Below, in pieces: positions 26,982 through 36,162 of a stretch of 64,000 nt of DNA. Position 1 is the first letter of the stretch. Every line of letters starts with the position of its first letter. This stretch comes from Rheinheimera sp. D18. Its GTDB lineage: Bacteria > Pseudomonadota > Gammaproteobacteria > Enterobacterales > Alteromonadaceae. The stretch spans positions 3,100,001 to 3,164,000 of the forward strand of contig NZ_CP037745.1 of the NCBI RefSeq assembly GCF_004345025.1, in the 5' to 3' direction. A program made the translations under genes and the position numbers. Under the pieces are notes generated by a model that was not told where the DNA came from, ran no database searches, and worked only from the letters and a program-made list of their open reading frames with translations.

Positions 26982-27548
26982 ATGTCTTCTATTATTAATA
27001 CTAAAATTAAGCCGTTTAAAGCTACTGCATTTCACGAAGGTAAATTCGTACCCGTTTCTGAGCAGGATTTAGCCGGTAAATGGTCTGTTGTGGTATTTTA
27101 CCCAGCTGACTTTACGTTTGTATGCCCTACAGAATTAGGCGACTTAGCTGATTTCTACCCTAAGTTCCAAGAAATTGGTGTTGAAGTGTACTCAGTATCT
27201 ACTGATACTCACTTTACTCACAAAGCGTGGCATGACGCGTCTGACACTATCAAAAAAATCAATTACCCAATGATTGGCGACCCAACTGGCGCTATCACAC
27301 GTAACTTCGGTGTAATGATTGAAGAAGAAGGTTTAGCTCTGCGTGGTACTTTCGTAATTAACCCGCAAGGCGAAATTAAAGTTGCTGAAATTCATGACCT
27401 AGGCATTGGCCGCAGCGCAGCTGAACTGTTCCGTAAAGTTCAAGCCGCTCAGTATGTTGCTAATCACGACGGTGAAGTGTGCCCAGCTAAATGGACTCCA
27501 GGTGAAGCAACATTAGCACCATCTCTGGACCTAGTTGGTAAGATCTAA
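26982..27548 (+). CDS. ahpC: Alkyl hydroperoxide reductase AhpC (peroxiredoxin)
   Basis: AhpC is a typical 2-Cys peroxiredoxin that reduces H2O2 and organic peroxides. The 188-aa protein has the peroxidatic Cys48 in FTFVCPTEL and the resolving Cys167 in GEVCPAKW, the same spacing as E. coli AhpC. A consensus AAGGAG lies 8 nt before the ATG. Its reductase ahpF follows 215 bp downstream across several hairpins. Confidence 0.97.
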
Positions 27549-27763: not shown

Positions 27764-29308
27764 ATGTTAGATACTAACCTGAAGCAAACACTTAAAACCT
27801 ATCTACAAAACTTGAAAACACAGGTTGAACTGGTGGTATCTTTAGACGATAGCGCCAAAGCAACTGAAGTACACACCTTAGCAACTGAAATTGCTGAGTT
27901 ATCAGATTTAGTGTCATTGCGTCGCGATGATACTGCTATGGCACGCAAGCCAGCTATGTTGGTGCGTTCGGTAGCAAACAACACCCACATCACCTTTGCC
28001 GGTGTACCACTGGGGCATGAATTTACCTCATTAGTGTTAGCACTGCTGCACTCTGGCGGCCACCCAATTAAAGTAGAAGCCGATGTTATTGAGCAAATTC
28101 GCCAGCTGCCAGGCAACTTCGCGTTTGAGACCTATGTATCACTAAGTTGCCAAACCTGCCCTGAAGTAGTGCAAGCACTAAACATCATGTCGGCCATTAA
28201 CCCTAACATTACTAACGTAATGATCGACGGTGCAATGTTCCAGCAAGAAGTAGCTGATAAAAACATTATGGCCGTACCTTCGGTTTACCTAAATGGTGAG
28301 CTATTTTCGCAAGGTGCCATTACGCTAGAAAAAATTATTCAAAAACTTGATGTTAATGCAGAAAAACGTCAAGCCGAAGCGCTGAAAAACAAAGCAGACT
28401 TTGATGTATTAGTGGTTGGTGGCGGCCCAGCAGGTGCAGCAGCCTCTATTTACGCTGCACGTAAAGGCTTAAACACCGGCATTGTGGCTGAGCGTTTTGG
28501 CGGCCAAGTCGCAGATACCGTAGGTATCGAAAACTTTATTTCGGTAAAATATACCGAAGGTCCAAAGTTAGTTAATAGCTTAGAAGCGCACGTACGTGAG
28601 TACAACGTAGATATTATGAACAATCAACGCGCAGTAAAACTAAGCAAAGATGGCAAGGTACAGCTAGAGCTGCAAAATGGCGCGGTACTTAAAAGTAAAA
28701 CCATTATTTTAAGCCCAGGTGCACGCTGGAGAGAAATGAACGTACCCGGCGAGCAAGAGTATCGTGGCAAGGGCGTGGCTTACTGCCCGCATTGTGACGG
28801 CCCGCTGTTTAAAGGCAAAAAAGTCGCGGTAATTGGCGGTGGTAACTCAGGTATTGAAGCCGCAATTGACCTAGCCGGCATTGTTGAACACGTTACCGTA
28901 TTAGAATTTGCTGCCGAACTGCGTGCCGATGCGGTACTAGTTAAAAAAGCCAATTCAATGGGCAACATTACCATTATTACCGAAGCGCAAAGTACCGAAG
29001 TAACCGGTGATGGCAGCCGCGTAACCGGCATTAACTATACCGACCGTAAAACGGGTAATGCACACCATGTAGAATTAGCCGGTATTTTTGTACAAATTGG
29101 TTTAGTGCCAAATACCGAATGGTTACGTGGCGCAATAGAGCTGTCATCTCGTGGTGAAATTATTATTGACGAGCGCGGCCAAACCTCAATGCCAGGCGTA
29201 TTTGCCGCTGGTGATGCTACTACCGCACCATTTAAGCAAATTATTATTGCTATGGGTTCAGGCGCCACCGCCGCATTAGGTGCCTTTGACTATATGATCC
29301 GTAACTAA
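27764..29308 (+). CDS. ahpF: Alkyl hydroperoxide reductase subunit F
   Basis: AhpF is the NADH-dependent flavoprotein that re-reduces AhpC. The 514-aa protein has the tandem thioredoxin-like N-terminal domain with Cys129/Cys132 (SCQTCPEV), a FAD-binding GGGPAG, the active CxxC Cys341/Cys344 (YCPHCDG) and an NAD-binding GGGNSG. These cysteine positions are close to E. coli AhpF. SD CGGAG sits about 6 nt before the ATG. A strong terminator follows. Confidence 0.97.
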
Positions 29309-29366: not shown

Positions 29367-29393
29367 ACGGCAACTTCGGTTGCCGTTTTTTTT
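29367..29393 (+). terminator. ahpF terminator
   Basis: ACGGCAAC (29367-29374) pairs with GTTGCCGT (29379-29386) around a stable TTCG tetraloop and is followed by eight Ts. The convergent methyltransferase gene ends at its edge. Confidence 0.92.
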
Positions 29394-30213
29394 ATTGCTG
29401 GCGTAGCGCATGCTCAGACGGTACGCCTAATAAATCTAACATCTGAATATTGATCTGTTTCTTCTGTAGCGGGGGAATAACTAAGGTGGTGATCTGGTTT
29501 AGTTTAGCCTGCACCAATTGGGATAATGGCAGCGTCTCAGCACGGTGCTGCCAAATGGGTAAATCAGCGGCTTCATATAATATCACCTGATGCTCAGCCG
29601 GATACCAACGCTGCAAATGCTGTGCAAGCACAGCGATATAGTGGCTGTTAGCGTTAAGATTACATAAACTAAAATCGCCAGCTATAGCGACTTGCCACAA
29701 AATAACATAGCCTGAAACATCGAGCGTACGCTGATAAAACAAAAATTGGCTGGCTTCAAACTGCTGACAACCTTCAGCTATAGGGTCTATACCTAAATCG
29801 GCATATAAACAGGCATCCGCTGCAATACCCGCTTCCATTTTGGCAGAATAACCCAGTATTTTTAACTGACGTATTGTTTCATGTGGTGGCCAGCTTGCTA
29901 CACCGGGGTGGCCATAACAAGCCCACACCACATTTTTACCGGCTTGTACTGCGTTAATTACCGCGTCGATCATGGCCTGATAACTCAGGCTTCGTGGCTG
30001 ACCATCTTGGTAAAACTGTTGCAAATCGACTAAGTTAGCGTTTATTTGCTGCAAAAACTTAGCAAGGTAGTGAGTATTGCTATGAAAAAATACTATATCG
30101 GCAGCTACCAACTGATTACGCGCTAACTCGGTTAACTGACTACCCAAGGTAATACCCAAACCCAGACAAATAAGCCGGCCATATTTTATGTTATTACCAT
30201 TTAATTCAGGCAT
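29392..30213 (-). CDS. Split-borosin alpha-N-methyltransferase (SonM-like)
   Basis: The 273-aa enzyme has a tetrapyrrole-methylase (class III SAM) fold: GRLICLGLGITLG at the start and a SAM-binding YGHPGV near residue 100. Residues Tyr68, Arg74 and Tyr78 (FYQDGQPRSLSY) reproduce the Tyr-x5-Arg-x3-Tyr spacing of the catalytic residues of the borosin enzyme OphMA (Tyr66, Arg72, Tyr76). Borosin enzymes methylate backbone amides of a peptide; in the split form the substrate is a separate precursor, and one is encoded two genes upstream. The start is the ATG at 30213, overlapping the GGDEF stop by 8 bp; a longer frame lies inside the GGDEF gene. A porphyrin-type methylase is the alternative. Confidence 0.8.
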   Translation of the reverse strand: MPELNGNNIKYGRLICLGLGITLGSQLTELARNQLVAADIVFFHSNTHYLAKFLQQINANLVDLQQFYQDGQPRSLSYQAMIDAVINAVQAGKNVVWACYGHPGVASWPPHETIRQLKILGYSAKMEAGIAADACLYADLGIDPIAEGCQQFEASQFLFYQRTLDVSGYVILWQVAIAGDFSLCNLNANSHYIAVLAQHLQRWYPAEHQVILYEAADLPIWQHRAETLPLSQLVQAKLNQITTLVIPPLQKKQINIQMLDLLGVPSEHALRQQ

Positions 30214-31918
30214 TGGCCGTTGCACTATGACTGCAATTACGCCCAGCGGCTTTAGCTTGGTATAGCGCGGCATCAGCCTGTTGCAGTAAGGTATCAAAAT
30301 TTGCGCTATCGCCACTAGCAATACCAAAACTGGCCGTCACGCTAATATTTTGCCCATTAACGACTATTGGACTATCAGCAATACTCTGACGGCACTGCTC
30401 AGCTAATTTAATCGCATCAGCCAAACGACAACCGGGTAAGAACATGGCAAATTCTTCGCCACCAATTCGTGCCAAAATATCCTGCTTACGTATATGCACA
30501 GAGCAGCGCGCAGCTATTTCGGTTAGCACAATATCGCCAGTACTGTGGCCATACTGATCATTAATCTGTTTAAACAAATCGATATCAAACACGATAAGGC
30601 TATATTCTTCCTGCTGTCGCCGGTTATTTAACTGTCGGCTAACGGCTTCGCTAAAATAACGCCTATTGTACAGTTTGGTGAGAAAATCCGTGGTGGCCAA
30701 CCGACTTAATAAAGCACGTTTGTTGTTTAATACATAAATAACGAATAACAACAGCAATGTAACGGCAATCGTTATCAGCAGAGCGTTAAATTTTTGGTCT
30801 TTTTGCAGTTGGCTTTCTAGCTTTAATAAATTATTTTGGCTTTTTAGCAGTGCCAGTTTATTTTCGCTTTCCATAAAGTCAGCCTGCGCCATATGGTAAG
30901 CCACACTGCGCTGCTTAAAATCGCCGATAAAAGCATTTAATGCGGCTATATGCTGCTTATAAGCAATAACCGCAGCGTGCATATCACCTTTTTTCTCATA
31001 TAACCGCGCTAACAATAACATCGATTTATTCGCCGTTTGGTTATCATTTAATTGTTTAGACTGTTGGTAGACCTGCTCTAAATTCACCTCAGCCGCACTA
31101 AGCTGATTGAGGTTAAGCTCAGCATATCCTAAATAATATCTCGTCAGAATTATGGTGTATAAATAACCAATTTCGTTTAACTTTGGTAAGGATGCTTGCA
31201 TGTTTTTTTTAACACGCTCAGGTGCACTGTTTACATCAACATCTGCGGTGAAAATGTCTACCGTATATTTCATCAAAGGTTCTTGTGCCTGTTCGCATGC
31301 AAGAGACGCTTTGTTTGCTAATTCTTGCGGATACGCGCCGACCAACTGCGTTAATGCTTGTAATTTTTGTGTGTAACTTATACAAAATCCTCTAGGAGAA
31401 TCAGCATACTCAGCAATCATATCAGCAAACTCAATGGCTTTTTCATAGGCATTGACGCTGCTATGAAGCTGCGCTGCTACAGTATAGACATTAACAAGTA
31501 GCATTCTATCGGTTACTATACGAGCATGTTTCAGTGCCTCATTTAATGATAAATAAGCCTCTTTATAGTTTTTCTTATGCTCAAACACTGTTGCAAGCAG
31601 TAAATAAGCCTTCACTCTAATGACTGCAGACTGGCTTTTAATTATTGTCTGAGCTAACGCAATGGCGTCATCTTGCTGGCCTTTGAATCCAAGCATATAC
31701 GCTTTGATAAAAATAAAATGATCACGTTGCTCAGAAGGCAGCTGTTTCAATATTGGCTCAAGCTGTTCAAGTATATGAAGCGTGGTTTCTGGGGACTTTG
31801 TTCTTAATGTTTCAGCCTCAGTTAACTGAGATTGAATAGATTCTAGGTCAAAAGCAAAAGCTGGAGCATTGCAAAACAATACTCCTAGTAGATAAAAAAT
31901 ATAGAACAATCTAGACAC
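30206..31918 (-). CDS. Exported TPR-membrane-GGDEF diguanylate cyclase
   Basis: The 570-aa protein has a signal peptide (about residues 1-22), a periplasmic array of TPR-like helical repeats (about 25-345), a coiled coil, one membrane helix (about 380-396, LLITIAVTLLLLFVIYVL) and a cytoplasmic GGDEF domain with an active-type GGEEF motif (ARIGGEEF) preceded by an RxxD I-site (RKQD). It should make c-di-GMP in response to something outside the inner membrane. The GTG start overlaps the stop of the borosin precursor gene by 1 bp (TAGTG) and its stop overlaps the methyltransferase start, so all three are translationally coupled. Confidence 0.92.
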   Translation of the reverse strand: MSRLFYIFYLLGVLFCNAPAFAFDLESIQSQLTEAETLRTKSPETTLHILEQLEPILKQLPSEQRDHFIFIKAYMLGFKGQQDDAIALAQTIIKSQSAVIRVKAYLLLATVFEHKKNYKEAYLSLNEALKHARIVTDRMLLVNVYTVAAQLHSSVNAYEKAIEFADMIAEYADSPRGFCISYTQKLQALTQLVGAYPQELANKASLACEQAQEPLMKYTVDIFTADVDVNSAPERVKKNMQASLPKLNEIGYLYTIILTRYYLGYAELNLNQLSAAEVNLEQVYQQSKQLNDNQTANKSMLLLARLYEKKGDMHAAVIAYKQHIAALNAFIGDFKQRSVAYHMAQADFMESENKLALLKSQNNLLKLESQLQKDQKFNALLITIAVTLLLLFVIYVLNNKRALLSRLATTDFLTKLYNRRYFSEAVSRQLNNRRQQEEYSLIVFDIDLFKQINDQYGHSTGDIVLTEIAARCSVHIRKQDILARIGGEEFAMFLPGCRLADAIKLAEQCRQSIADSPIVVNGQNISVTASFGIASGDSANFDTLLQQADAALYQAKAAGRNCSHSATANA

Positions 31919-32124
31919 TATTTAACAGGAAACATATAAGGTACAACATTTACTGCATTACCCGTTAGTTTCTCGACTTGTGCTTTATCACCCGATAACA
32001 CCGCTTCAATTTCATGGCTTTGTAAGCCGTAGTTTTTTAGTGTATTGGCAGGTGAAGCAGAATACTCTTGCAGTAACTTAGGGTTAGTTGCTAATTCAGC
32101 AATAAATTTACTTAAATCTGACAT
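31918..32124 (-). CDS. Split-borosin precursor peptide (SonA-like)
   Basis: A 68-aa peptide whose first about 54 residues form a compact helical domain (SDLSKFIAELATNPKLL, then TLKNYGLQSHEIEAVLSGD) resembling by eye the borosin-binding domain of Shewanella SonA, followed by a hydrophobic C-terminal tail NVVPYMFPVK that would be the methylated core. AAGGGA sits 6 nt before the ATG. No cysteines or leader cleavage motif are seen. The last codons overlap the next gene by 1 bp. Resemblance rests on memory of SonA and on the adjacent methyltransferase; an unrelated small regulatory protein is the alternative. Confidence 0.75.
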   Translation of the reverse strand: MSDLSKFIAELATNPKLLQEYSASPANTLKNYGLQSHEIEAVLSGDKAQVEKLTGNAVNVVPYMFPVK

Positions 32125-32379: not shown

Positions 32380-33801
32380 GTGCAGTATTTACCTATTTTT
32401 GTTAAGTTAACCGGCCAACCAGTGCTGATTGTTGGTGGCGGTTCGGTAGCGCTGCGTAAAGCTAACACGCTGTTAAGTGCTGGCGCTAAGCTTAGCGTAG
32501 TCGCACCAGAATTTGCGGCCGAATTTATTACTTGGCAACAACAAGGCAAAGCAGAGCTAATTAATAGCTATTTTGTGCCTAGCTTATTAGATAACAAACT
32601 ATTAGTTATTGCTGCAACCAATAGCGACACCGTTAATGCTGCGGTATTTAAAGCCGCAACCGCGCGTAATATGTTGGTTAATACCGTAGATGACCAAGCC
32701 AAGTGTGGTTTTATTTTTCCGGCTATTATTGACCGCAGCCCAATACTGATCGCTATTTCTAGTTTTGGTACGGCACCCGTGTTAGCACGGCGTTTGCGTG
32801 AAAAACTTGAGGCTTTACTGCCGCAGCACTTAGGGCCGTTAGCAACCTTGGTCGGCAGTTTTCGCAACAAAGTAAAAGCTAAAATTAGTAGCTTTGCGGG
32901 TCGCCGCCAATTTTGGGAAGGGGTATTTAACTCTGACGTAGTACGCAAGGTGCAAGCTAATCAACTCGATGCGGCGAAACAACATTTAGAACAATTATTA
33001 ACCGCACCGCAAAAACACAGTGGTGAAGTCTATATTGTTGGCGCAGGCCCAGGCGACCCTGAGTTACTAACCCTTAAAGCGCTGCAATTGATGCAGCAAG
33101 CCGACGTGGTGGTGTATGACAACTTAGTATCTGCTGAAGTGTTGACTTTAGTGCGCCGCGATGCCGAGCAAATTTGCGTAGGTAAAAAAGCCGGAGCGCA
33201 TTCAGTAACGCAACAAGATACTAATCAACTGCTAATAGATTTAGCGTTAGCGGGTAAAAAGGTATGCCGCTTAAAAGGTGGCGACCCGTTTATATTTGGC
33301 CGCGGCGGCGAAGAAATTCAAGCATTAGTGCCGCACAATATTGCCTTTCAAGTAGTGCCGGGTATTACCGCGGCAGCTGGCTGTGCCGCTTATGCCGGTA
33401 TACCGTTAACCCATCGCGACCACGCGCAAAGTGTGCAGTTTGTTACCGGGCATTGCCAACATGATGGTAGCGAACCAAATTGGTTTAGTATGAGCAGTAC
33501 TAACCAGACTCTGGTAATTTATATGGGTTTAATGAAGGCCGCTTATATTCAACAACAACTAATTAAAGCAGGTCGTAGTGCTGAAACACCCGTGGCTATT
33601 ATTGAAAACGGCACGCGTCGTGAGCAACGCATTGTAACGGGCAAGTTGTATAATTTAGCTGAGCTAGTAATGCAGCATCAAATAAGCTCACCGGCGCTAT
33701 TGGTTATTGGTGATGTGGTTAGTTTGCAACAAGATTTACATTGGTTTGGCCTGCGCCCGCAAGCTGCGGTATTTAGTCAAAACCTTACACAGATGGCCTA
33801 A
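32380..33801 (+). CDS. cysG: Siroheme synthase CysG
   Basis: CysG makes siroheme, the CysI cofactor, from uroporphyrinogen III. The 473-aa protein is trifunctional: an N-terminal NAD-dependent dehydrogenase/ferrochelatase domain (LIVGGGSVALRKA, Ser128 in ISSFGTAPVLARRLREK, the same position as the regulatory serine in E. coli) and a C-terminal uroporphyrinogen methylase (VGAGPGDPELLTLKA, GDPFIFGRGGEE). The start is GTG with AGGAG 7 nt upstream. It leads the cysGDN operon. Confidence 0.96.
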   Translation: MQYLPIFVKLTGQPVLIVGGGSVALRKANTLLSAGAKLSVVAPEFAAEFITWQQQGKAELINSYFVPSLLDNKLLVIAATNSDTVNAAVFKAATARNMLVNTVDDQAKCGFIFPAIIDRSPILIAISSFGTAPVLARRLREKLEALLPQHLGPLATLVGSFRNKVKAKISSFAGRRQFWEGVFNSDVVRKVQANQLDAAKQHLEQLLTAPQKHSGEVYIVGAGPGDPELLTLKALQLMQQADVVVYDNLVSAEVLTLVRRDAEQICVGKKAGAHSVTQQDTNQLLIDLALAGKKVCRLKGGDPFIFGRGGEEIQALVPHNIAFQVVPGITAAAGCAAYAGIPLTHRDHAQSVQFVTGHCQHDGSEPNWFSMSSTNQTLVIYMGLMKAAYIQQQLIKAGRSAETPVAIIENGTRREQRIVTGKLYNLAELVMQHQISSPALLVIGDVVSLQQDLHWFGLRPQAAVFSQNLTQMA

Positions 33802-33811
33802 GGATTAACAG

Positions 33812-34723
33812 ATGTCGGAACTTACCAGCGCTCTAACCCACTTGCAGCAGCTTGAAGCAGAGAGTATTTATATTTTTCGTGAGGTGGCGGCCGAATTTAA
33901 AAAGCCAGTAATGTTGTATTCAATAGGTAAAGACTCATCGGTATTACTGCACTTAGCACGAAAGGCGTTTGCGCCGGGTAAAATACCCTTTCCACTGCTG
34001 CATGTTGATACCACCTGGAAATTTCGCGAAATGATCGAGTTTCGTGATCGCTTAGCAAAAGCCTATAACTTTGAACTGCTAGTACATAAAAACCCAGAAG
34101 GCTTAGCCATGAATATTAACCCGTTTATTCATGGCAGCGCTAAGCATACCGACATTATGAAAACCGAAGGCTTAAAGCAGGCGCTAAACCAATACGGTTT
34201 TGATGCTGCTTTTGGTGGTGCTAGGCGTGATGAAGAAAAATCGCGAGCAAAAGAGCGGGTGTATTCATTTCGCGATAAACACCACCGCTGGGATCCAAAA
34301 AACCAACGCCCAGAGTTATGGAACCTGTATAACGGCGCGATTAATGACCACGAAAGTATTCGCGTATTTCCGTTATCAAACTGGACCGAACTGGATATTT
34401 GGCTCTATATCCTGCAAGAAAATATCGACATAGTGCCGCTGTATTTAGCCAAACAGCGGCCGGTGGTAGAGCGTAACGGCAGCCTTATTATGGTTGACGA
34501 CGAGCGCATGCCGCTAGAACCGGGTGAAACGCCGCAACTTAAATCGGTACGTTTTCGCACACTGGGTTGTTATCCCCTGACTGGGGCTATTGAATCAACT
34601 GCTAACACGCTAGAAGCGATAGTAGAAGAAATGCTGCGTGCCCGCACGTCGGAACGACAAGGCCGGGTTATTGATCAAGATCAGTCGGGTATGGAATTAA
34701 AGAAACGCGAGGGGTATTTCTAA
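33812..34723 (+). CDS. cysD: Sulfate adenylyltransferase subunit CysD
   Basis: CysD, with CysN, activates sulfate to APS. The 303-aa protein has the PP-loop [17 protein letters not shown] and the [12 protein letters not shown] and LDIWLYI segments of the family. It lies 10 bp after cysG and overlaps cysN by 1 bp (TAATG). Confidence 0.97.
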
Positions 34724-36162
34724 TGTCATCGGTAACCGTTACCTCATTAAATGAGCAGTTAAATACACTAGGTATTCGCGATTATTTGCAACAGCATCAA
34801 AGCAAAGGCTTACTGCGAGTACTTACCTGCGGCAGTGTCGATGATGGCAAAAGCACGCTTATCGGCCGATTATTGCATGACAGCCAACAGCTATATGACG
34901 ACCAATTAGACGCCTTAAAGCGCGACCATAAAGGCCGTAACGGTGAAGGCGAGTTAGAGCTAGCCATGTTAGTCGACGGCCTTCAGGCTGAACGCGAACA
35001 AGGCATTACTATCGACGTGGCTTATCGGTATTTCTCAACCACCAAGCGTAAATTTATTTTGGCCGACACACCAGGCCACGAACAATACACGCGCAATATG
35101 GCCACCGGCGCGTCCACCTCTGATGTGGCAATATTACTGATTGATGCGCGCTATGGTGTGCAAACCCAAACTCGGCGCCATAGTTTTATTTGTGCGCTAT
35201 TAGGTATTAAACACCTCGTTGTTGCCGTAAATAAAATGGATATCATTGGTTATAGCGAACCAGCTTATCAGGCTATTAAGTTGGAAATACAGGCACTAAT
35301 GGCGCAGTTACAAGTGCCAACGGTAGACATAGTGCCAATTAGCGCCTTAAAGGGTGAAAATATTTTAACGCTTTCAGCCAATATGCCTTGGTATACCGGC
35401 ACAGCATTATTACCACTGCTAGAAACCCTGTCTATACCGAAGTATGGTGGCAGCGCTACTCGCTTTCCGGTGCAGTATGTTAACCGCCCCGATCTTAACT
35501 TTCGTGGCTTTGCTGGCAGCTTAGTCAGTGGCCGTTTAGCCGTAGGCCAAGCCATTACCGCTTACCCATCTGGGAAAAAAACCACTATTAAGCAAATAGT
35601 AACCTTTGCCGGCGAGCAAGCTTCAGCCAGCGCGGGGCAAGCCGTTACTATAACGCTAAATGATGAAATTGACGTTAGCCGCGGTGACTGGTTAGTGCCC
35701 TCTGAAGAGACCGTAACCCTAACCAATCGTGCACTGGCTTATTTAGCCTGGTTTAATGAACAGTCACTACAAACTGGTCGCTTATATGATATAAAACTGT
35801 CAACCCGAAAAACCAGCGCCAGCATTAACAGGTTGAATTATAAAGTTAATATTAACACTTTAGCACAAGAAGCAGCCGAACAAGTAAGCATTAACGATAT
35901 TGCGCTAGTGGAACTAGAGTTAACCGAAACACTGCCGCTAGATACCTTTAAAAACCAACCTAGCACGGGCAATTTTATCTTAATTGACCGCTTAACCAAT
36001 GCCACAGTAGCGGCAGGCTTAATTCAGAATATTTTAGCCGAAGAAAAAGCCAGCGGGACAGATATCAGTGCCTTTGAGTTAGAGCTGAATGCACTTGTTC
36101 GCAAACATTTTCCGCATTGGGAAGCGCGAGATGTGCGTGAATTAGTTAAGGCTGATAAATAA
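34723..36162 (+). CDS. cysN: Sulfate adenylyltransferase GTPase subunit CysN
   Basis: CysN is the EF-Tu-like GTPase that drives APS formation by CysD. The 479-aa protein has G1 GSVDDGKSTLIG, the switch residue in EQGITIDVAYRY, G3 DTPGHEQYTRN and G4 NKMD, plus two beta-barrel domains. It stands alone rather than fused to CysC, which is encoded separately downstream. Confidence 0.97.
   Translation: MSSVTVTSLNEQLNTLGIRDYLQQHQSKGLLRVLTCGSVDDGKSTLIGRLLHDSQQLYDDQLDALKRDHKGRNGEGELELAMLVDGLQAEREQGITIDVAYRYFSTTKRKFILADTPGHEQYTRNMATGASTSDVAILLIDARYGVQTQTRRHSFICALLGIKHLVVAVNKMDIIGYSEPAYQAIKLEIQALMAQLQVPTVDIVPISALKGENILTLSANMPWYTGTALLPLLETLSIPKYGGSATRFPVQYVNRPDLNFRGFAGSLVSGRLAVGQAITAYPSGKKTTIKQIVTFAGEQASASAGQAVTITLNDEIDVSRGDWLVPSEETVTLTNRALAYLAWFNEQSLQTGRLYDIKLSTRKTSASINRLNYKVNINTLAQEAAEQVSINDIALVELELTETLPLDTFKNQPSTGNFILIDRLTNATVAAGLIQNILAEEKASGTDISAFELELNALVRKHFPHWEARDVRELVKADK

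What the first reader, a model, noticed from the sequence alone, without database searches (positions are those of the whole stretch)
29392..32124. Probable split-borosin RiPP operon: SonA-like peptide, diguanylate cyclase, SonM-like methyltransferase
Seen: a 68-aa helical peptide with a hydrophobic C-tail (NVVPYMFPVK), then a TPR-GGDEF gene, then a tetrapyrrole-methylase-fold enzyme with Tyr68-x5-Arg-x3-Tyr, all overlapping at stop/start (1 and 8 bp). Known: OphMA uses Tyr66, Arg72, Tyr76; split borosins (Shewanella SonA/SonM) have separate precursor and enzyme. Inference: the enzyme N-methylates backbone amides of the peptide tail.
Basis: partly seen in the sequence, partly recalled or inferred. 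Interest (0 to 1): 0.9.

Follow-up and report, generated by a model that had tools for sequence, protein, structure and literature searches.

The report
Split-borosin operon with dedicated c-di-GMP sensor
A three-gene bacterial operon encodes a small peptide, an enzyme that very probably methylates its backbone, and a membrane sensor that makes the messenger c-di-GMP; the peptide and sensor genes usually stay side by side in related bacteria, which suggests, but does not show, that such peptides act as signals.

Summary
In detail: a 68-aa peptide, a TPR-GGDEF protein and a SonM-like enzyme lie on the minus strand at 32124-29392, overlapping by 1 and 8 bp. The enzyme's best solved relatives are SonM (E 2e-70) and OphMA, with all three catalytic residues; the peptide matches SonA over residues 1-57 and its model matches SonA's five-helix domain. 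It is a type IV split borosin.

The middle gene is the interesting part. It belongs to a TPR-GGDEF subfamily (periplasmic TPR sensor, one membrane helix) tied to borosin loci: 97 of 108 members found in 394 genomes lie within 10 kb of a borosin methyltransferase, and 132 of 132 linked members share two sensor cysteines absent from 9 control TPR-GGDEFs. The precursor gene usually sits directly before the cyclase, wherever the methyltransferase is; in 8 loci (about three lineages) one methyltransferase serves two or three precursor-cyclase pairs. The same gene follows sonM-sonA in a Shewanella.

Best reading: the enzyme N-methylates the tail (predicted Tyr63, Phe65) and the peptide acts on its paired periplasmic sensor to set c-di-GMP. 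The chemistry is nearly certain by homology; the signalling step is inferred. A GGDEF component appears in a published borosin figure key, so co-occurrence may be known.

The parts
31918..32124 (-). SonA-like precursor peptide, 68 aa: borosin-binding domain (residues 1-55, 31960-32124) plus tail/core (residues 56-68, 31921-31959)
   Evidence: phmmer to SonA chains E 1.3e-6; AlphaFold2 model of five helices, pLDDT 82.6; PDB matches ranked 1-29 are SonA in SonM complexes, best E 8e-4, TM 0.75; ribosome-binding-like AAGGGA 5 nt before the ATG (by eye)
31921..31944 (-). conserved C-terminal residues 61-68 (VPYMFPVK); predicted N-methylation at Tyr63 and Phe65
   Evidence: gapless alignment to SonA-type precursors to column 68; SonA is methylated at L63 and I65 (PMC8429565 section 16); in 8 precursors position 61 is V/I, 63 F/Y, 65 F, 67 V/A, while 62 and 64 vary. 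Site assignment is inference
30206..31918 (-). TPR-GGDEF diguanylate cyclase, 570 aa: signal peptide (about 1-22, by eye), periplasmic TPR sensor (25-310), long helix 313-409 with membrane part 379-397 (30728-30784), GGEEF 486-490 (30449-30463), I-site RKQD 477-480
   Evidence: Pfam GGDEF E 1.2e-46 and TPR matches; AlphaFold2 pLDDT 91.7; hydropathy; active-site residues invariant in 58 of 58
31295..31384 (-). stretch holding the sensor cysteine pair Cys179 (31382-31384) and Cys208 (31295-31297), signature of the borosin-linked TPR-GGDEF subfamily
   Evidence: both Cys in 132 of 132 linked and 13 of 13 unlinked subfamily members, 0 of 9 next-best TPR-GGDEFs
29392..30213 (-). SonM-like backbone alpha-N-methyltransferase, 273 aa from ATG 30213; Tyr68, Arg74, Tyr78
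   Evidence: PDB match SonM E 1.8e-70; TP_methylase Pfam E 1.3e-13; catalytic residues invariant in 23 of 23

Best explanation
A type IV split-borosin locus tied to c-di-GMP signalling. (1) The methyltransferase binds the precursor's helical leader and N-methylates backbone amides of its tail, most likely at Tyr63 and Phe65 (by homology; about 0.95 that it is a borosin N-methyltransferase, about 0.6 for these sites). (2) The TPR-GGDEF protein has a periplasmic TPR sensor, one membrane helix and an intact diguanylate cyclase motif (sequence and model). (3) Precursor and cyclase form the conserved unit: the N-methylated tail, once released into the periplasm, or the precursor itself, is the cognate ligand of the TPR sensor and sets c-di-GMP output (inferred; about 0.5). 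How the tail is cut and exported is unknown; I saw no peptidase or transporter gene in the operon or directly beside it.
For: Enzyme and precursor homology, fold and catalytic residues. Two-way linkage: 97 of 108 subfamily cyclases within 10 kb of a borosin methyltransferase in 394 genomes; 75 genomes hold both, 20 the enzyme only, 2 the cyclase only. In the tree of 169 methyltransferases the 132 cyclase-linked ones lie on one side of a branch with support 97 and none of the 24 on the other side is linked. A precursor-like ORF sits directly 5' of 129 of 149 distinct cyclases; for 51 of these it was outside the training set and has E < 1e-5. Eight of 16 loci with more than one cyclase have one precursor before each cyclase and a single methyltransferase in the stretch fetched: two pairs in L031, L032, L033, L036, L039, L126, L128, three in L141; the ORFs concerned are outside the training set, E 1e-12 to 1e-26, in L141 1e-4 to 5e-6. 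L219 keeps precursor plus cyclase without a nearby methyltransferase. Signal-like N-terminus in 122 of 132, membrane helix in 132 of 132. The sensor evolves faster than its partners: means over 21 pairs, enzyme 81.8%, GGDEF domain 75.3%, sensor 53.2%.
Against: No binding, export or c-di-GMP data for any member in what I could read. No signal peptide is evident in the precursor and the operon has no peptidase or transporter, so how a peptide reaches a periplasmic sensor is open. Pairing is not strict: L034, L089, L092 and L120 have an extra precursor-like ORF that is not directly before a cyclase, and 20 of 149 cyclases have none detected directly before them. Five of the eight multi-pair loci are from the window's genus and probably one event. 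Of the 132 linked cyclases, 4 lack a GG[DE]EF motif (L069, L101, L189, L200). Of 13 orphan cyclases 12 keep the motif without an adjacent methyltransferase. Only 29 of 47 systematically sampled enzyme places are linked and 5 of 16 further hand-picked, mostly low-scoring ones. Core-sensor covariation is weak: partial r 0.26, permutation p 0.015, 19 of 28 loci kept, not corrected for relatedness.
Confidence: 0.55

Rival explanations
1. The cyclase controls the borosin, not the reverse: it senses some other periplasmic cue and its c-di-GMP switches on synthesis or release of the peptide, which acts elsewhere (for example as an exported metabolite).
For: Adjacency and dedicated pairing fit this as well; loci with more precursors than cyclases (L034, L089, L092, L120) fit it at least as well. 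No Rfam family reached its threshold in 11 loci, so there is no sign of a known c-di-GMP riboswitch either way.
Against: One methyltransferase serving two or three precursor-cyclase pairs is harder to explain if the cyclase only regulates synthesis.
Confidence: 0.28
2. The precursor acts as an unmodified or modified small protein partner in the cytoplasm (leader domain included), touching the membrane or GGDEF part of the cyclase, and the periplasmic TPR domain senses something else.
For: No export route is encoded next to it; small protein activators of cyclases exist (a SiaD-SiaC complex was the top PDB match of the model, chain SiaD, so through the cyclase only).
Against: The conserved part of the precursor besides the leader is the short tail that the enzyme acts on; the fast-evolving part of the cyclase is the periplasmic sensor.
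Confidence: 0.12
3. The enzyme is a porphyrin or precorrin methylase and the peptide gene is unrelated.
For: It matches Pfam TP_methylase, which also covers CobA/CysG, its only NCBIfam match is YabN, far below cut-off (56.6 against 525 bits), and it lies beside cysG.
Against: The 25 PDB matches at E <= 0.01 are borosin enzymes; the peptide has SonA sequence and fold; CysG is a separate gene.
Confidence: 0.02

Closest known systems
Type IV split borosin SonA/SonM of Shewanella oneidensis (PMC8429565)
   Same: Separate precursor with five-helix borosin-binding domain; SonM-like enzyme with Tyr/Arg/Tyr; about 70-aa precursor. In Shewanella sp. ANA-3 (L140) a near-identical SonM, a SonA-like precursor and a 594-aa GGDEF gene lie in a row.
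   Different: Gene order is precursor-cyclase-enzyme, not enzyme-precursor-cyclase; genes overlap; the tail ends FPVK; enzyme 45% identical to that of L140.
Fused borosins (OphMA, dbOphMA, MroMA)
   Different: Precursor is a separate gene here; bacterial.
Borosin types figure with a GGDEF domain in its key (PMC11395268, figure 1 legend)
   Same: Shows that a GGDEF component had been drawn in at least one borosin type before this work.
   Different: The text gives it no function (two occurrences, both in one sentence of that legend); the figure itself is not held.
RcbAB of Vibrio vulnificus (PMC12282931, abstract and passages)
   Same: A TPR-GGDEF cyclase whose activity is set through its TPR domain by a partner from the same operon; the discussion also mentions two V. 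parahaemolyticus cyclases with predicted periplasmic TPR domains.
   Different: RcbB is predicted cytoplasmic and its partner is a TPR protein, not a modified peptide.

Membership tests
Type IV split borosin | Methyltransferase homologous to SonM/OphMA with the three catalytic residues | tested here: met
   SonM E 1.8e-70; Tyr/Arg/Tyr invariant in 23 of 23
Type IV split borosin | Separately encoded precursor of about 75 residues near the enzyme | tested here: met
   68-aa gene in the same gene row, one gene away; the paper describes adjacent genes
Type IV split borosin | Precursor leader is a five-helix borosin-binding domain | tested here: met
   SonA 1-57 E 1.3e-6; five helices, PDB matches to SonA TM up to 0.75
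Type IV split borosin | Backbone alpha-N-methylation of the tail | not testable with these tools
   needs co-expression and MS/MS
Borosin-linked TPR-GGDEF subfamily (defined here) | High profile score, Cys179/Cys208 pair, GGEEF | tested here: met
   546.7 bits for the window member; in 12 genomes 22 hits at 395 bits or more and the next at 269, though in 394 genomes hits run down to 302 bits at the cut used; Cys pair; GGEEF
CobA/CysG porphyrin methylase | Closest relatives among tetrapyrrole methylases; CysG domains | tested here: not met
   no such PDB match at E <= 0.01; no CysG domains
Peptide-receptor (ligand-sensor) signalling pair | Peptide binds the sensor and changes c-di-GMP | not testable with these tools
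   only genetic pairing shown

The most novel reading that the evidence does not exclude
Gammaproteobacterial split borosins of this clade are signalling peptides: each backbone-N-methylated tail is the dedicated ligand of the periplasmic TPR sensor of the diguanylate cyclase encoded directly after it, a ribosomal-peptide to c-di-GMP circuit with exchangeable peptide-receptor pairs sharing one modifying enzyme.
Probability: 0.33. Interest if true: 0.88.

Novelty: new variant of a known kind. Interest (0 to 1): 0.64.

Why it matters
The 2021 split-borosin paper stated that none of the type IV pathways was tied to a final natural product. A dedicated membrane cyclase beside the precursor turns the question of what these peptides do into a direct experiment (does the peptide change c-di-GMP through its own sensor?) and would, if true, join backbone-N-methylated peptides to c-di-GMP control in Shewanella, Rheinheimera, Colwellia, Rhodanobacter, Lysobacter and other genera whose loci carry the pair.

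Tried and rejected
Porphyrin methylase reading: rejected. A c-di-GMP riboswitch in the gaps of about 500-650 nt seen between enzyme and precursor in many loci of the window's genus: no Rfam match at gathering threshold in 11 loci; in the window only a sub-threshold PhrS match on the other strand, E 0.12, 18.8 bits against a cut-off of 37. Promoter/terminator scan was no better than shuffles for promoters (6 found, mean 8.4) and within about one sd for terminators (5 found, mean 3.4, sd 1.9). Idea that cyclases decay when the borosin genes are lost: the own-genome orphan (L208) has GDEEF instead of GGEEF, but the other 12 of 13 orphans keep GG[DE]EF, so not supported. Core-sensor covariation: weak, kept only as suggestive; in the same test the core-GGDEF partial correlation was -0.36. 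Structural search with the whole TPR-GGDEF model: the 50 rows shown of 1,542 are, by their titles, cyclases, GGDEF proteins or their fusions, so nothing was learned about the TPR part; the second aligner was not available. Literature: no held paper has both 'borosin' and 'diguanylate cyclase'; one has 'borosin' and 'GGDEF'; 14 have RiPP, diguanylate cyclase and biosynthetic gene cluster, of which I saw 12 titles and abstract starts, none naming borosins; 32 have 'borosin', 30 listed. Papers that could settle prior mention: Imani 2022 (not held), Crone 2023 (not held; title and its claim of a bacterial borosin product are recalled), Cho 2022 (not looked up).

Full report
OBSERVATION. On the minus strand: precursor 32124-31918, TPR-GGDEF 31918-30206, enzyme 30213-29392. 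The 1-bp and 8-bp overlaps are real. Flanks: AhpC at 26982 and an AhpF-like reductase at 27764; on the other side, divergently, CysG at 32380 and a PAPS-reductase-family gene at 33812. In the ORF list I saw no peptidase or transporter directly beside the operon; a frame that looks like an SLC13-type transporter by eye starts at 36162, beyond the cys genes.

ENZYME. phmmer against solved structures gives SonM at E 1.8e-70, then dbOphMA/OphMA and MroMA; 25 of 25 matches at E <= 0.01 are borosin enzymes. An alignment with 22 relatives keeps Tyr72, Arg78 and Tyr82 (numbering from the GTG; 68, 74, 78 from the ATG) in 23 of 23 rows. In SonM the corresponding residues are Y58, R67 and Y71 (passages and section 16 of PMC8429565).

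PRECURSOR. SonA chains match residues 1-57 without gaps at E 1.3e-6. The AlphaFold2 model, from an alignment of 10 sequences, has five helices and its PDB matches ranked 1-29 are SonA in SonM complexes; only the first is below E 0.001. In the alignment with SonA-type precursors of Shewanella there is no gap before column 68, so SonA's methylated L63 and I65 fall on Tyr63 and Phe65. In 8 precursors of the window's own group, position 61 is V/I, 63 F/Y, 65 always F, 66 always P, 67 V/A, while 62 and 64 vary. Conserved alternate positions fit an enzyme that methylates every second residue. The site assignment is inference.

CYCLASE. Pfam GGDEF E 1.2e-46 and several TPR models, most below their own cut-offs. 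The model (pLDDT 91.7, pTM 0.64) is a helical solenoid to residue 310, a long helix 313-409 and a GGDEF domain; hydropathy shows an N-terminal signal-like stretch and one membrane helix at 379-397. Of 132 linked cyclases, 122 have the N-terminal stretch and 132 the helix; 4 show a further hydrophobic stretch in the sensor. GG[DE]EF is found in 127 of 132 by a positional pattern, plus L124, whose shorter frame holds it; L069, L101, L189 and L200 lack it. The I-site pattern is in 110 of 132.

HOW TIGHT IS THE LINK. (a) 38 of 60 relatives have the enzyme; 95 of 394 genomes of the order; 15 of 398 drawn from the phylum. (b) The 80 best named loci, counting the best-scoring enzyme of each: 77 have a GGDEF gene on the same strand within 1.3 kb (70 downstream, 7 upstream); L093 has a shortened one at 1,557 nt, and 2 end at contig ends. 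These are the nearest relatives and so a biased set. (c) Systematic sample, every third of 143 enzyme places in the 394 genomes: 29 of 47 linked (23 downstream, 6 upstream), 14 not, 4 on short contigs; one of the 14, L158, has a subfamily cyclase about 0.5 kb away on the other strand. (d) Sixteen further places, chosen by hand mainly from the low-scoring end and from other orders: 5 linked (L192, L193, L194, L198, L200), 11 not, three of these on short contigs. (e) The other way round: of 108 subfamily cyclases at E <= 1e-85 in the same 394 genomes (at most three scored per genome), 97 lie within 10 kb of an enzyme place and 96 within 3 kb, either strand; by genome, 75 have both, 20 the enzyme only, 2 the cyclase only, the rest neither (the script's Fisher test used 395 genomes and ignores relatedness, so I do not rely on its p value). 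(f) In 12 genomes searched with the cyclase profile, 22 hits score 395 bits or more and the next 269; from the coordinates I read 21 of the 22 as lying within 3.2 kb of an enzyme. In the larger set the scores run down to 302 bits at the cut used, so the gap is not clean everywhere. The window genome has 35 GGDEF domains.

TREE. For 169 distinct enzymes (12 on truncated contigs; short-search tree), the 132 linked ones lie on one side of a branch with support 97, together with 7 unlinked and 6 truncated; the other side has 24 enzymes, 18 unlinked and 6 truncated. The rooting is arbitrary and several long branches are unsure. The window's group of 8 rows is fully supported and has the cyclase upstream of the enzyme throughout.

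SIGNATURE. Two sensor cysteines (179, 208) occur in 132 of 132 linked and 13 of 13 unlinked subfamily members and in 0 of 9 next-best TPR-GGDEFs from the same genomes. A periplasmic disulfide is likely but not shown.

THE PRECURSOR USUALLY FOLLOWS THE CYCLASE. A precursor-like ORF lies directly 5' of 129 of 149 distinct subfamily cyclases. The profiles were trained on ORFs picked by position, so 70 of these are circular; 51 more are outside the training set with E < 1e-5 and 8 are weaker. Of 16 loci with more than one such cyclase, 8 have a precursor before each and one enzyme in the stretch: two pairs in L031, L032, L033, L036, L039, L126, L128 and three in L141, none of these ORFs checked being in the training set. 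L031-L039 are from the window's genus, L126 and L128 from Rhodanobacter and Dyella, L141 from Marinicella, so about three independent cases. Against strict pairing: L034, L089, L092 and L120 have a surplus precursor not directly before a cyclase. L219 has precursor and cyclase but no enzyme nearby, while that genome has one enzyme of the other type elsewhere. In the window the precursor touches the cyclase gene and not the enzyme gene. This is the main argument for a functional peptide-cyclase pair.

FAST SENSOR. Over 21 pairs of the window's locus type, mean identity is 81.8% for the enzyme, 75.3% for the GGDEF domain and 53.2% for the sensor. For G000-G021 the sensor is 46.4% and the GGDEF domain 77.4%, against 63.5% and 71.6% for a control TPR-GGDEF; only two of six control comparisons look orthologous, so the control is thin. 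In seven genomes with both locus types, the two enzymes are 45-49% and the two cyclases 27-30% identical, while between genomes each type averages 81-82% and 54-61%: the pair has been inherited as a unit.

FOUNDING LOCUS. In Shewanella sp. ANA-3 (L140) the enzyme is almost identical to SonM (E 3.3e-178) and is followed by a SonA-like precursor and, 6 bases after its stop codon, a 594-aa GGDEF gene with a signal-like N-terminus. So the link belongs to close kin of the best-studied split borosin too; S. oneidensis MR-1 itself was not examined.

PRIOR KNOWLEDGE. PMC8429565: abstract, sections 6 and 16 and passages seen; GGDEF and diguanylate occur 0 times in its main text. PMC11395268: passages seen; GGDEF occurs only in the legend key of figure 1. 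PMC11285071: passages seen. PMC12282931: abstract and passages seen. The two bioinformatic surveys of split borosins are not held or not looked up. I therefore do not claim that the co-occurrence is unpublished; the two-way linkage, the cysteine signature and the precursor-cyclase pairing were not seen in anything I could read.

ORGANISM. The window lies in one 3.31-Mb contig; the closest named loci are Arsukibacterium, an unnamed gammaproteobacterial MAG and Rheinheimera. The genome itself is unnamed.

Noticed in passing
L208 6924-8672 (own genome, G000:C1:1507923-1509671): A second subfamily cyclase in the window's genome without enzyme or precursor; flanking DNA aligns on both sides with loci of relatives that carry enzyme-precursor-cyclase, so these two genes seem lost. 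Its motif reads GDEEF, unlike the other 12 orphans.
   Followed up: partly
L031-L058 (same genus, second locus type): Precursors with a Cys-containing core (such as NKIVCMIFPAEEP) and a long acidic tail, many separated from the enzyme gene by about 500-650 nt without a conserved ORF that I could see.
   Followed up: partly
L034, L089, L092, L120: Loci with a surplus precursor-like ORF not directly before a cyclase, for example 5' of the enzyme in L089 and L092.
   Followed up: no
L189, L200, L069, L101: Borosin-linked TPR-GGDEF proteins that keep the cysteine pair but lack a GG[DE]EF motif, so the cyclase may be inactive.
   Followed up: no
L195 2454-5978 and L203 600-2516: Borosin-like enzymes inside long frames of 1174 and 638 aa with no other Pfam domain at E <= 0.001.
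   Followed up: no
L071 5992-7633; L160, L169, L170: Two borosin-type methyltransferase genes close together; in L071 they overlap by 8 bp and no cyclase is nearby.
   Followed up: no
L034 8124-8543 (near G012:C45:130977-131357): A short partial enzyme-like frame about 2.4 kb from the intact one, with an internal stop: probably a gene remnant.
   Followed up: no
plasmid records: 13 plasmid records hold distant matches to the enzyme (24-37% identity in the ten rows shown), including Bradyrhizobium, Sinorhizobium, Azospirillum and Haloarcula; at least one (Bacillus subtilis, mazG) is not a borosin enzyme. Neighbours not examined.
   Followed up: no
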